In this document: positions 14,623 to 50,120 of the stretch, one piece after another
How the letters are laid out: the number at the start of each line of letters is the position of its first letter
Numbering within the stretch: the first letter of the stretch is position 1
From: Sunxiuqinia dokdonensis
Lineage (GTDB): Bacteria; Bacteroidota; Bacteroidia; Bacteroidales; Prolixibacteraceae
Direction of reading: 5' to 3'
Assembly: GCF_001270965.1 (NCBI RefSeq)
Contig: NZ_LGIA01000161.1
Location: 62,001-126,000, forward strand
DNA: 64,000 bases
Notes under the pieces: model-generated
Database searches by the model: none
What the model was told of the DNA's origin: nothing
What the model saw: only the letters and a program-made list of their open reading frames with translations
Made by a program: the position numbers and the translations under genes

Positions 14623-15270
14623 TTAGTTATCCACAATCACCCGGGCGGCCAGGTAGCCGTTGTAAAAGTTGGGATCGCGGCGTTTAAAGATTTTCATCAC
14701 CTTGTCCAGCTTGTTGTTGAGGATGTCGCTGGCTTCGGAAAAAAGTTGTTCCAGGCTTTGGGTGGCCTGCGCCGACTCAATCTGGTAGGCCCGGGGCATT
14801 CCGTTCAACTGCAGAAAGTTATCCAGGTCTGCTTTCAAATCGTCAACTTGCTCCACCGTGACACCGTACTCAGCCTGCAACACGTCCAGGTGCGCTTCGG
14901 CTTCCCTGATGATCTCCTGGTTTTTGGGAATAAACTCAAGGTTGGTCAGCCGGTGAATATCCGAGAAAGAATCTTTCATTCGGCTCTCCAGTGCCAAATC
15001 TCCGGATACGGCCCCCATCGATTCCAGGGCATCGTTTAAAATATCGCCCTTGAGGGCAATGGCGTACTTCAATTCTTTTTTGCTTTTGCCGAGAAACACC
15101 TGGGCGGCTTGCTGCGCCTCCTGAGATTGCTCAATTTGCTGGTTAACGGTGTCGAGTTGATTTTTAAACTCACCGACTTTGGGGATCGCAGTCCATTTGT
15201 CAACATTTCGGTCCAAAAAGTTGATCACCGAGTCCTGCATTTCCTTGTGGTTGATCTGTCTTTTATTCAT
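14623..15270 (-). CDS. Helical coiled-coil hypothetical protein
   Basis: A 215-residue soluble protein that is predicted almost wholly helical, with Gln/Glu/Asp-rich heptad stretches (for example 'QIEQSQEAQQAAQVF' and 'LDVLQAEYGVTVEQVDDL'). It has no signal peptide and no membrane segment. I do not recognise a named family, though similar uncharacterised proteins are common in Bacteroidota. It stands alone with its own terminator. GC content is closer to the core genome than the AT-rich genes to its left, so it may mark the right edge of the AT-rich island. Confidence 0.75.
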   Translation of the reverse strand: MNKRQINHKEMQDSVINFLDRNVDKWTAIPKVGEFKNQLDTVNQQIEQSQEAQQAAQVFLGKSKKELKYAIALKGDILNDALESMGAVSGDLALESRMKDSFSDIHRLTNLEFIPKNQEIIREAEAHLDVLQAEYGVTVEQVDDLKADLDNFLQLNGMPRAYQIESAQATQSLEQLFSEASDILNNKLDKVMKIFKRRDPNFYNGYLAARVIVDN

Positions 15271-15465
15271 GGTAGTTTGGGTTAATTGATTATGCTAGTT
15301 ACGAAAAATAAATTTAGATGGCAAACATTGGTTTATTTAAAGAAAACATCAAACTGTAATTTAAATTCATTCTAATTAACTGGAGGGGTTTCGTTTCAGT
15401 AAACAGTTACGGTGCCTATCGATGAGTATTCATTTGTGTGCTGCGGGTTTGCCGGATATTCAACG

Positions 15466-15717
15466 GTTGTTGCAGTGCAGTCAGGGGCTGTTGCAGTTCT
15501 GTCAGCAGCTATTGTTGTGTCGTTAGGACTTGTTGCAACGCTGTCAGGGGTTGTTGCAGGACTGTCAGCGGTTGTTGCAATACAGTCTGTGCTTATTGCA
15601 GTACTGCTAGGGGCTGTTGCAGTGCTGTCAGGGGTTGTTGCAATGCTGTCAGGGGTTGTTGCAGTACTGTCAGGGGTTGTTGCAATGCTGTCAGCGGTTG
15701 TTGCAGCTCAGCATGAT
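15466..15717. repeat. Tandem array of 12 x 21-bp imperfect repeats
   Basis: The motif GTTGTTGCA (with variants) begins at 15466, 15487, 15508, 15529, 15550, 15571, 15592, 15613, 15634, 15655, 15676 and 15697, an exact 21-base period without indels. The consensus is close to GTTGTTGCAATGCTGTCAGG plus one base. One plus-strand frame stays open through it (15412-15849) as seven-residue repeats such as AVLSGVV, but it lacks a credible start, so I treat the array as non-coding. Confidence 0.92.
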
Positions 15718-29538: not shown

Positions 29539-31497
29539 ATGAAAAAACTATTCAAAGTCATCCTCTATTTTCTCCTCATTGCCGTGGGAATTGTTCTGGT
29601 TGCCACCCTCGCTTTTAATACCTACTACTCCATATTAAACAAAAAGGCCGAAAAGGAACTTCAAGATGTTCAGCTGTTAACCATCGATGGACTCCGGTTT
29701 CGGGACTTGAATAAGAATGAACGGCTGGATCCATACGAAGACGCGCGTCAGCCAGTTGATGTTCGGGTGGAAGACATCCTCTCACAAATGACACTGGAAG
29801 AAAAAATCGGGCTCATGTGGCATCCACCCATTGGTGTTGGCGACAAGGGAGAACTTCAAACCAAGCCCGGCATTTATAGTGCAGTATCTACCTACGATGC
29901 CGTCATTCACAAAAAGCTCAATCATTTCAACTTGTTCGCCGTACCGGAAGCAAAACACCTCGCAAACTGGTCAAACCGGTTACAGCAGCTGGCTGAGAAA
30001 ACGCGCCTGGGAATCCCGGTCAGTATCAGTACTGACCCCCGGCATGGGCTTTCCAACTTCATTGGCATGGATCTGCTGGGCGGTGAGTGGTCGCGCTGGC
30101 CGGAGCCTGTTGGGCTGGCAGCCATTGGCGACTCATCGCTGGTGGTTGAGTTTGGAGAAATCGCGCGGCAGGAGTATCGTGCCGTGGGCATCCACACCGC
30201 GCTTCACCCGATGGCTGATTTGGCCACTGACCCCCGCTGGGCCCGAATTAACGGCACGTTTGGCGAGGATGCCAGGCTCTCGGCAAAACTGACCGCCGCC
30301 TATATTTACGGATTTCAGGGCGACTCGCTGGACAGCAACAGCGTGGCCTGCATGACCAAACACTGGCCTGGCGGCGGCCCGCAAGAGGCCGGCGAAGATG
30401 CTCACTTTCATTACGGGAAAAATCAGGTTTACCCGGGTAATAACTTCAAATACCATCTGATTCCTTTTGAAGCGGCACTTGCAGCCAACACCGCGATGAT
30501 GATGCCCTATTATGGCATTGCCGTTGACCAAACCACCGAAAACGTGGGGATGAGCTTCAACAAGGAAATTATTACCAAACTGCTGCGCGAGGAATACGGC
30601 TATGATGGCGTGGTTTGCACCGACTGGGGTATTATTGAAGGATTCTCATTTCTGGGTTACGAACTGGTGGAGGCCAAAAACTGGGGCGTTGAAAATTTAT
30701 CGGTTGACGATCGGATTGCTAAAGTAATTGACGCCGGAGTTGACCAGTTTGGAGGAAACATGCACACCCGCCAGCTGCTTCGGTTGGTAAGAAAAGGCGA
30801 GGTGTCGGAAGATCGGATTGACGAGTCGGCGCGCCGCTTGCTACGGGTTAAATTTGAACTTGGCTTGTTCGACAATCCGTTTGTTGATCCGGAACAGGCT
30901 GTTGAAATTGTGAATCAAAAAACATCCAAAGAAAAGGGACAAATGGCCCAGCGAAAGTCGATCGTGTTGTTAAAAAACGGAGCCGATGGCCACCGTCAGA
31001 ACGTCCTTCCATTAAAAAAAGAAATAAAAATATACACGGAGAACATCAATCCTGAAGTGGCATCAAACTATGCGACGGTCGTCGCGAAACTTGAGGAGGC
31101 CGACTTCGCGATACTGCGGCTCACAACGCCATTTGAAAATCGTACCGATGACTTCATTGAGCGGATGTTCCACCAAGGCGATTTGAATTTTCCTGAGCCG
31201 GAACTTTCACGACTGCTCAACATCATGCATAAAAAACCTACCATCGTTTGCATCTACCTGGATCGTGCGGCAGTCATTCCCGAAATCGCCCAACAAAGTA
31301 AAGGCCTGCTGGCCGACTTTGGCGCTGAAGATGAGGCCGTACTGGATGTTATTTTTGGAGATTTTAAGCCGCAAGCCAAACTTCCCTTCGAACTGCCTTC
31401 GTCAATGGAGGCTGTGGAAACCCAAAAGGAAGATGTGCCCTACGATTCGAAAAATCCTTTGTATCCGTTTGGCTTTGGGCTGACTTATGACGAGTAA
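29539..31497 (+). CDS. Glycoside hydrolase family 3 beta-glucosidase-like protein, membrane-anchored
   Basis: A 652-residue GH3 enzyme. A hydrophobic N-terminal helix (about residues 4-28) without a lipobox suggests a signal anchor or a cleaved signal. The catalytic (beta/alpha)8 domain spans about 85-450 with 'KHWPGGGPQEAGEDAHFHYG' and 'YDGVVCTDWGIIEG', whose Asp is the family nucleophile. The alpha/beta sandwich domain follows and ends near 'YPFGFGLTYDE'; no fibronectin-III-like domain is present, so it is shorter than BglX. The substrate (a beta-glucoside or related glycan in the periplasm) is inferred. It is transcribed away from the glycogen genes. Confidence 0.92.
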   Translation: MKKLFKVILYFLLIAVGIVLVATLAFNTYYSILNKKAEKELQDVQLLTIDGLRFRDLNKNERLDPYEDARQPVDVRVEDILSQMTLEEKIGLMWHPPIGVGDKGELQTKPGIYSAVSTYDAVIHKKLNHFNLFAVPEAKHLANWSNRLQQLAEKTRLGIPVSISTDPRHGLSNFIGMDLLGGEWSRWPEPVGLAAIGDSSLVVEFGEIARQEYRAVGIHTALHPMADLATDPRWARINGTFGEDARLSAKLTAAYIYGFQGDSLDSNSVACMTKHWPGGGPQEAGEDAHFHYGKNQVYPGNNFKYHLIPFEAALAANTAMMMPYYGIAVDQTTENVGMSFNKEIITKLLREEYGYDGVVCTDWGIIEGFSFLGYELVEAKNWGVENLSVDDRIAKVIDAGVDQFGGNMHTRQLLRLVRKGEVSEDRIDESARRLLRVKFELGLFDNPFVDPEQAVEIVNQKTSKEKGQMAQRKSIVLLKNGADGHRQNVLPLKKEIKIYTENINPEVASNYATVVAKLEEADFAILRLTTPFENRTDDFIERMFHQGDLNFPEPELSRLLNIMHKKPTIVCIYLDRAAVIPEIAQQSKGLLADFGAEDEAVLDVIFGDFKPQAKLPFELPSSMEAVETQKEDVPYDSKNPLYPFGFGLTYDE

Positions 31498-31564: not shown

Positions 31565-31949
31565 TAAAACCAACTGTTCATTTTCCAAAATCAGAATAGC
31601 CTAAACTAAAACAAGCTTCTCAGACTACAAAACTATGACCTCTTCTGATAAAACTTGTGCGTCGTTAATTCACACTTGCACCCTCTCCAATAAAACTTGA
31701 ACTTCATTTTACAAAAGTCTTACCTTTTCTGACAAAAGTACTACCTCTTTTTTTAAAAGTTGAACTTCATTACTTAAAAGTGGTACTTCATCTGGCAAAA
31801 GTATTACTTCATCTGGCAAAAGCCGTAGATCATCTAGCCAAAGTAATACATCTCTTAGCAAAAGTAATACATCATTTTACAACAATAGAACCGCATTTGT
31901 TAAAACTGAAACTGATTATTTCAAAACTAAAAGCATTTTTTTCAAAATC
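31565..31949. repeat. Array of ~18 x 21-bp phased A-tract repeats
   Basis: A YAAAA start recurs at 31565, 31586, 31607, 31628, 31649, (31670), 31691, 31712, 31733, 31754, 31775, 31796, 31817, (31838), 31859, (31880), 31901, 31922 and 31943, an exact 21-base register; bracketed units have a broken A-tract. Central units approach CAAAAGTATTACTTCATCTGG. Sequence diverges strongly between units while spacing never shifts. One frame stays open from 31669 to 31983 with seven-residue repeats but has no credible start. Confidence 0.9.
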
Positions 31950-32001: not shown

Positions 32002-32041
32002 AAACGGGGTGACCTGCTGCCAAGTCACCCCGTTTCTGTTT
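32002..32041 (+). terminator. Strong terminator after the 21-bp array, convergent with katG
   Basis: A 12-bp perfect stem AAACGGGGTGAC / GTCACCCCGTTT with a 10-base loop is followed on the plus strand by CTGTTTTTT. The T-run is on the plus side, so it best terminates rightward transcription that would include the array; it may also stop leftward katG transcription, though its minus-side T-run is short. Confidence 0.75.
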
Positions 32042-49782: not shown

Positions 49783-49855
<73 letters not shown>

Positions 49856-49866
49856 TTGTTTTTTTT

Positions 49867-49933
49867 CCTTGTTACCGCGACTCCGATCCGTCAGTTGCCG
49901 GATCGCGCTCACTACCAACTGAGCTACTCTCGC
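49867..49933 (-). pseudogene. Decayed tRNA-Gly-like sequence 1
   Basis: It starts like the neighbouring tRNA-Gly (GCGAGAGTAGCTCAGTTGGTAG) but then changes: the anticodon arm is an ATCCG/CGGAT stem with an 8-base loop, and after GAGTCGCGG the T-loop and 3' acceptor strand are missing. It cannot fold as a tRNA. A relative lies at 50139-50203. Confidence 0.75.
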
Positions 49934-49950
49934 CATAAAACTGTAAATGG

Positions 49951-50034
49951 TACCCGGGGCGGGACTTGAACCCGCACGATCATAATGATCATTGGATTTT
50001 AAGTCCAACGTGTCTACCATTCCACCACCCGGGC
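49951..50034 (-). tRNA. tRNA-Leu (UAA)
   Basis: An 84-base class II tRNA on the minus strand. The anticodon arm is TTGGACTTAAAATCCAA (anticodon TAA) and the variable arm TGATCATTATGATCG forms the expected hairpin. T-loop GGTTCAAGTCC is canonical. Acceptor GCCCGGG pairs with CCCGGGT with a G-U first pair. Confidence 0.94.
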
Positions 50035-50047
50035 ATCCTTAAAATGG

Positions 50048-50120
<73 letters not shown>

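What the first reader, a model, noticed from the sequence alone, without database searches (positions are those of the whole stretch)
31565..31949. Eighteen A-tracts phased at exactly 21 bp between a GH3 gene and katG
A YAAAA motif recurs every 21 bases for 18 units without a single register slip, while the rest of each unit is very diverged. A-tracts in phase with two helical turns are expected to bend DNA in one direction. Conservation of phase over sequence argues for a structural role: a curved-DNA site for a nucleoid protein, or chromosome-domain or insulator function. This is a second, unrelated-sequence array with the same period as the one at 15.5 kb.
Basis: partly seen in the sequence, partly recalled or inferred. 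Interest (0 to 1): 0.62.

Follow-up and report, generated by a model that had tools for sequence, protein, structure and literature searches.

The report
Dispersed intergenic arrays, two-helical-turn repeat unit
Between two ordinary metabolic genes of a marine bacterium lies a 21-base repeat that proves to be one of many mostly unrelated repeats in this genus that keep the same two-turn spacing and seem to spread as small non-coding elements, so the spacing and not the sequence is what needs explaining.

Summary
Window 31565-31949 is an 18-unit array in strict 21-bp register, not matched by 1000 shuffles; YAAAA is exact in 15 of 18 units and a second block (about TACnTCAT) is conserved too. 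It lies between convergent GH3 and katG genes of a Sunxiuqinia genome. It is not alone: 25 of 40 periodic-repeat hits in 1.27 Mb of this genome have periods of 21, 22, 41 or 42 bp. Their sequences are mostly unrelated, but six unit families recur at two or more loci. Of four junctions followed into relatives, three lack the array in the nearest relative between the same two genes (the fourth could not be judged). Unit order is collinear between copies in some families, not in others, including this one. Positions favour convergent gene ends (10 of 22). The array has stops in all six frames and is not palindromic; an intact hairpin lies beside it. Curvature is model-dependent for this array and not common to the class. 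Best reading: a dispersed, probably non-autonomous BOX/BIME-like intergenic element whose body is a phased array. Why unrelated families keep a two-turn period is unexplained and is the interesting part.

The parts
31565..31949 (.). 18-unit direct array, unit about CAAAAGTnnTACnTCATCTGG, strict 21-bp register (family A)
29539..31497 (+). glycoside hydrolase family 3 gene, convergent left neighbour
   Evidence: Pfam PF00933/PF01915
32077..34332 (-). katG-type peroxidase gene, convergent right neighbour
   Evidence: Pfam PF00141; matches at 74-80% in four of the six other genus genomes
32002..32035 (.). strong hairpin between array and katG, followed by a T-run on the + strand: probable terminator, outside the array
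   Evidence: -21.3 and -27.7 kcal/mol on the two strands, z -5.3 and -8.4; not reported by the consensus scan (0 terminator-like sites)
15460..15706 (.). second array of the window, 11.8 units of 21 bp, unrelated sequence (family F; further copies on contigs C148 and C205)

Best explanation
The array is one copy of a class of small dispersed non-coding elements in Sunxiuqinia. Each element's body is a head-to-tail array of about 5 to 18 diverged units of two helical turns (21 or 22 bp, or 41/42 bp when two alternating units make the period). Elements of one family recur at unlinked loci, some stand at gene junctions that are empty in relatives, and they lie more often than expected at convergent gene ends. 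They therefore behave like non-autonomous mobile or otherwise dispersed intergenic repeats of the BOX/BIME kind. Shown: dispersal, empty sites at three junctions, 3' bias, shared period. Inferred: that they move by a trans-acting enzyme (a candidate is the Y1 REP-type transposase found in all seven genus genomes), and that the unit length is fixed because successive units must face the same side of the helix for a protein that loads along the array. For the window array itself the dispersal evidence is one further locus with the same unit; its copying is inferred from the class.
For: Period: 25 of 40 detector hits in 1.273 Mb of the own genome have p = 21, 22, 41 or 42; the rest are 10 at p14, 2 at p8 and one each at p9, p10 and p24. 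Codon-block-shuffled DNA gives none in 0.70 Mb. Dispersal: family A at two loci (E 1.3e-11); B at three loci, of 8.8-8.9 units each; C: L084 and L219 are 92% identical over about 485 bp including flanks, with relatives in G004, G003 and G001; D: four loci; E: copies in own, G003 and G001; F: three loci. Collinear unit order for C within the genome (0 of 500 unit-order shuffles reach it), C against L318 (2), D against L329 (1) and L330 (0), F against L351 (6), D against L331 (20). Empty sites: G004 has a short spacer without array at the L079 junction (about 73 bp against 372), the L008 junction (about 96 against 376) and the L227 junction (about 23 against 604); G003 lacks the last two (about 112 and 129 bp) and G001 the L227 array (about 32 bp). 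A segment of about 305 bp at 91% is shared by G001 and G003 with no homologous neighbouring gene found; both copies lie near contig ends, so essentially one side was testable. Location: 10 of 22 classified arrays between convergent genes against 49 of 304 gaps (p 0.001), 2 divergent against 86 of 304 (p 0.03).
Against: Families A and B show no collinearity beyond shared units (55 of 500 for A; 204-354 of 500 for B); C against L316 (252) and L317 (94) and F against L352 (335) also fail. No terminal inverted repeats or target duplications were seen. No transposase is tied to any family by a test. The core motifs of B, and nearly all matches of A (one loose match, L087), lie inside arrays in the sample, unlike single REPs. 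In G002 (100 kb), G017 (100 kb) and G035 (40 kb) no two-turn array was found, and in G006 (200 kb) two weak ones. The window site could not be shown empty in the nearest relative. The same-face-protein idea has no direct evidence, and one protein cannot recognise unrelated families by sequence.
Confidence: 0.5

Rival explanations
1. Locally born minisatellites: polymerase slippage and unequal exchange make tandem copies in slack 3' spacers, which then decay by substitution.
For: Arrays are commonest where constraint is weakest; families A and B share units but not unit order, as independent expansion would give.
Against: 25 of 40 periodic hits fall at 21/22/41/42; 1279 mismatches against 19 indel positions in 25 own arrays; collinear copies at unlinked loci in C, D and F; equal unit counts among family B copies.
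Confidence: 0.17
2. Curved DNA or nucleoid-protein site: phased A-tracts bend the DNA in one direction and organise the chromosome or block supercoil diffusion between convergent genes.
For: Strict 21-bp phase; the A-tract-only model puts the window array above all 25 shuffles (1.98 against a maximum of 1.91), and 7 of 18 arrays in all, the 15.5-kb one narrowly (1.16 against 1.13); the 16-wedge model puts 4 of 18 above all shuffles. Convergent position.
Against: The 16-wedge model does not lift the window array (1.31 against 1.22 +/- 0.19), its family A sister L014 exceeds the shuffle maximum in neither model, the 15.5-kb array (1.02) and family B (1.01-1.02) are straight in it, and 22-bp arrays are out of phase with 10.5 bp per turn (parameters recalled).
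Confidence: 0.13
3. Transcription-ending or RNA-level element: arrays form serial hairpins that stop or buffer convergent transcription.
For: 10 of 24 arrays are palindromic beyond column-permuted controls (p < 0.05), and 5 of the 6 22-bp arrays are, with RNA folding z down to -6.7. At the der junction, G004 and G003 carry a hairpin with a T-run, and the own genome has the array instead (sequences, read by eye, not folded).
Against: The window array is not palindromic (p 0.15), folds no better than controls (z -0.2 and -0.6) and lies beside an intact hairpin.
Confidence: 0.1
4. Remnant or live coding heptad repeat (21 bp = 7 codons).
For: Some 21-bp arrays have an open frame; the 15.5-kb one is open in three frames.
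Against: At least 3 stops in every frame of the window array, no significant codon-position pattern of conservation in any of 19 arrays (smallest p 0.16), and 22-bp arrays exist.
Confidence: 0.02

Closest known systems
Pneumococcal BOX elements (boxA-(boxB)n-boxC)
   Same: Small dispersed intergenic elements with a tandem module array, over-represented between convergent genes (PMC3049150, passages seen)
   Different: One sequence family with boxA and boxC end modules; here there are many unrelated families, one shared unit length, and no shared ends found for family A
REP/BIME elements linked to RAYT (Y1) transposases
   Same: Extragenic dispersed units, clusters of regularly spaced repeats, transposase family present; a rolling-circle amplification model was proposed for BIMEs (PMC2817692, passages seen)
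   Different: The window unit is not palindromic and is in direct, not alternating, orientation; exact core matches of family A lie inside its arrays in the sample
Phased A-tract curved DNA
   Same: A-tracts in helical phase
   Different: One A4 tract per two turns; the class includes arrays straight by the wedge model and 22-bp periods
Bacterial minisatellites (VNTR)
   Same: Head-to-tail repeats in spacers
   Different: Highly diverged units, one period class across unrelated sequences, collinear copies at other loci in some families

Membership tests
BOX-like dispersed repeat element | recurs at unlinked intergenic loci | tested here: met
   Family A two loci, B three, D four, F three; one F copy falls inside a called ORF
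BOX-like dispersed repeat element | over-represented between convergent genes | tested here: met
   10 of 22 against 49 of 304 gaps, p 0.001
BOX-like dispersed repeat element | conserved end modules around the tandem module | tested here: not met
   A 2.4-kb query around the other family A array matches the window only inside the array; C and the G003 leader family do share flanks, and E seems to
REP/BIME | palindromic unit | tested here: not met
   Window array p 0.15
REP/BIME | REPs in alternating orientation | tested here: not met
   18 units head to tail
REP/BIME | RAYT-type Y1 transposase in the genome | tested here: met
   PF01797 in 7 of 7 genus genomes, 3 matches in own (one with an internal stop); that they are RAYTs and not other Y1 transposases was not tested
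Curved-DNA site | predicted curvature above composition-matched DNA | tested here: inconclusive
   One model yes, one no
MITE | terminal inverted repeats and target-site duplication | tested here: inconclusive
   None seen by eye at three junctions or in aligned copies; spacers too diverged for base-level ends
Intrinsic terminator | GC hairpin followed by T-run inside the array | tested here: not met
   hairpin lies outside at 32002-32035
Protein-coding repeat | open frame through the array | tested here: not met
   At least 3 stops in each of six frames

The most novel reading that the evidence does not exclude
In this genus a kind of genetic element is defined by geometry and not by sequence: unrelated repeat families are each held at two helical turns per unit (20.5-22 bp). 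Either selection acts on same-face spacing at gene 3' ends (a protein filament or a sink for the supercoils between convergent genes), or one enzyme whose copying step is set by two turns of DNA makes them all.
Probability: 0.25. Interest if true: 0.78.

Novelty: new variant of a known kind. Interest (0 to 1): 0.52.

Why it matters
Bacterial spacer repeats are usually defined by their sequence. A genus in which many unrelated repeat families share one unit length, and are present or absent at conserved gene junctions, separates two questions that are usually confounded: how tandem arrays are made, and what the helix imposes on them. It can be tested in cultured species such as Sunxiuqinia elliptica.

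Tried and rejected
Coding heptad repeat: rejected for the window array. Curvature as the shared function: not supported for the class, open for this array. Hairpin or terminator function of this array: not supported. Simple REP family: exact core matches of families A and B fall inside arrays in the sample, save one loose family A match in L087. Rfam: only three tRNAs in the window at gathering thresholds. Phage and plasmid collections: no match to the array; viral contigs: no exact match to a two-unit pattern of it. Literature: eight searches listed nothing that I recognised as describing such a two-turn class in Bacteroidota; I judged by titles and abstract starts, and most subscription papers are not in that library. 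PMC9426551 (passages) mentions intergenic tandem repeats only in passing; PMC7537859 (abstract and outline) concerns genome-wide 10-11-bp dinucleotide periodicity. The E. coli K-12 control (200 kb) gave three hits, p21, p12 and p49; the p21 one lies in the coding gene gfcA.

Weak points: gene contexts come from a mechanical longest-ORF caller. Part of the sampled own contigs was chosen because of array hits (contigs, and C214); leaving out that first batch and L229, 16 of the 25 arrays remain in about 0.84 Mb (counted). Curvature parameters were recalled. Minus-strand loci from the genome search are not turned: L351 and L331 were first compared in the wrong orientation, and some checks returned nothing for that reason; L351, L331 and most junction checks were redone, the remaining loci were not. 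Indel counts depend on a gap penalty of 3 against 1 for a mismatch. At the L227 junction G002 and G006 hold about 5 and 1.5 kb of other DNA, which I did not examine.

Full report
What was checked. The array at 31565-31949 is real. Eighteen units keep a 21-bp register with no slip, and no dinucleotide shuffle in 1000 comes near its periodicity. YAAAA is exact in 15 of 18 units. The remainder is not random: columns 11-17 (about TACnTCAT) form a second conserved block roughly half a unit away. The array lies in the spacer between GH3 (+) and a katG-type peroxidase gene (-). Between array and katG is a strong hairpin, followed by a T-run on the + strand, at 32002-32035, so the probable terminator is separate.

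Where it is. A protein search of named genomes places the window in Sunxiuqinia (nearest listed record Sunxiuqinia sp. LH_M90 at 94% for a neighbouring gene; an uncultured Sunxiuqinia 87%, S. indica 84%, S. elliptica 82%).

It belongs to a class. A period detector (mean identity at lags p, 2p, 3p in 126-bp windows, p 8-80, threshold 0.45) was run over 1.273 Mb of the own genome. It gave 40 hits: 21 bp (10), 22 bp (6), 41 bp (3), 42 bp (6), 14 bp (10, a different heptamer-type repeat), 8 bp (2), and one each at 9, 10 and 24. Codon-block-shuffled sequence gave none in 0.70 Mb. In 77 loci of named relatives (1.43 Mb; the loci of LH_M90, of G003 and of S. elliptica were left out, one S. indica locus without arrays was kept) four of 26 hits were at 21, 41 or 42, with clear examples in Mangrovibacterium marinum, a Mariniphaga and Prolixibacter bellariivorans. 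In the genus, two-turn hits were 6 in 214 kb of G003, 3 in 215 kb of G001, 2 weak ones in 200 kb of G006 and 0 in 100 kb of G002; family members G017 (100 kb) and G035 (40 kb) gave 0. Array sequences are mostly unrelated to each other. By wraparound alignment the 25 own arrays hold 1279 mismatches and 19 indel positions (summed); 34 arrays including G003 and G001 hold 1848 and 44.

It is dispersed. Families with two or more loci: A (window and contig C23), B (C18, C23, C214), C (C24 and C22, 92% over about 485 bp, plus relatives in G004, G003 and G001), D (C161, C41, C206, C209), E (C27, C173, C75 and sisters), F (the 15.5-kb array, C148, C205). Unit order is collinear between copies for C within the genome, C against L318, D, and F against L351, but not for A, B, C against L316 or L317, or F against L352. 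In G003 a leader of about 150 bp (94% between two loci) stands beside different 21-bp arrays, and one G003 array is 91% identical to one of G001 with no homologous neighbouring gene found, essentially one side being testable because both lie near contig ends.

It is present or absent at the same junction. Four own junctions were followed through the genus. At three, the nearest relative G004 has both flanking genes, a short spacer and no array: about 73 against 372 bp (L079), 96 against 376 bp (L008) and 23 against 604 bp (L227). G003 lacks the arrays at the second and third junctions and G001 at the third. At the second, G003 and G004 have a hairpin with a T-run where the own genome has the array (by eye). 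The fourth, the MscS-type gene of L014 (name recalled from its sequence), had no match in G004; its four sister loci carry no detected array. The GH3-katG neighbourhood itself was seen only in the own genome: GH3 was found in four of seven genus genomes and katG in five, and where both occur elsewhere (G001, G003) they lie on different contigs. In G003 GH3 is followed by another gene and then an array of other sequence; in G001 no array was detected there. None of the four sister katG loci carries a two-turn array within 1.5 kb.

What it is not. Coding is excluded for this array. Palindromic structure is found in 10 of 24 arrays, among them 5 of 6 with a 22-bp period, but not in this one. Predicted curvature is model-dependent for this array; over 18 arrays 4 exceed all shuffles in the wedge model and 7 in the A-tract-only model (parameters recalled), so it is neither absent nor general.

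Mechanism. Dispersal, empty sites and 3' bias fit non-autonomous dispersed elements; the pneumococcal BOX elements show the same convergent bias, which their authors read as suggestive of parasitic, non-autonomous mobility (PMC3049150, passages). A rolling-circle amplification by RAYT transposases was proposed for BIMEs (PMC2817692, passages). Such a step could make tandem units here, and Y1 transposases are present in all seven genus genomes, but no link to any family was shown. The common two-turn unit is explained by neither; my inference is that successive units must present the same face of the helix to a protein. This is untested.

Verdict. A real and well-delimited class, most likely a new variant of dispersed intergenic repeat, with an unexplained constancy of period.

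Noticed in passing
L285:816-2270 (- strand) and loci L257-L286 of G003: A tyrosine recombinase (PF00589 plus PF13495) stands beside a short palindromic site that recurs upstream of diverse accessory genes and at several contig ends; it may be an integron or gene-cassette system in a Sunxiuqinia relative. Not tested as such.
   Followed up: partly
L041:5664-9744 and 14645-14812; L085:43-1155; L219:4894-5061; L221:7358-7525; L223:11187-11354: A second kind of spacer repeat in the own genome with 14-bp period, in L041 and L085 built of heptamers such as GATGCTT.
   Followed up: no
L008:11936-12287 (own) against L320 (G004) and L326 (G003): At the der junction two relatives have a hairpin with T-run; the own genome has a palindromic 22-bp array and no such hairpin visible.
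   Followed up: partly
L299:3063-3687 and L306:1900-3775: Y1 transposase genes in the own genome and G006 lie next to REP-like hairpins (CCCCTCGTT...AACGAGGGG type); the tail of the family C element carries a similar stretch.
   Followed up: partly
L087:11371-11640: A 42-bp array whose consensus is close to a palindrome (36 of 42 positions), made of alternating inverted 21-bp units.
   Followed up: no
window 49783-50120: Cluster of three tRNA genes on the minus strand.
   Followed up: no
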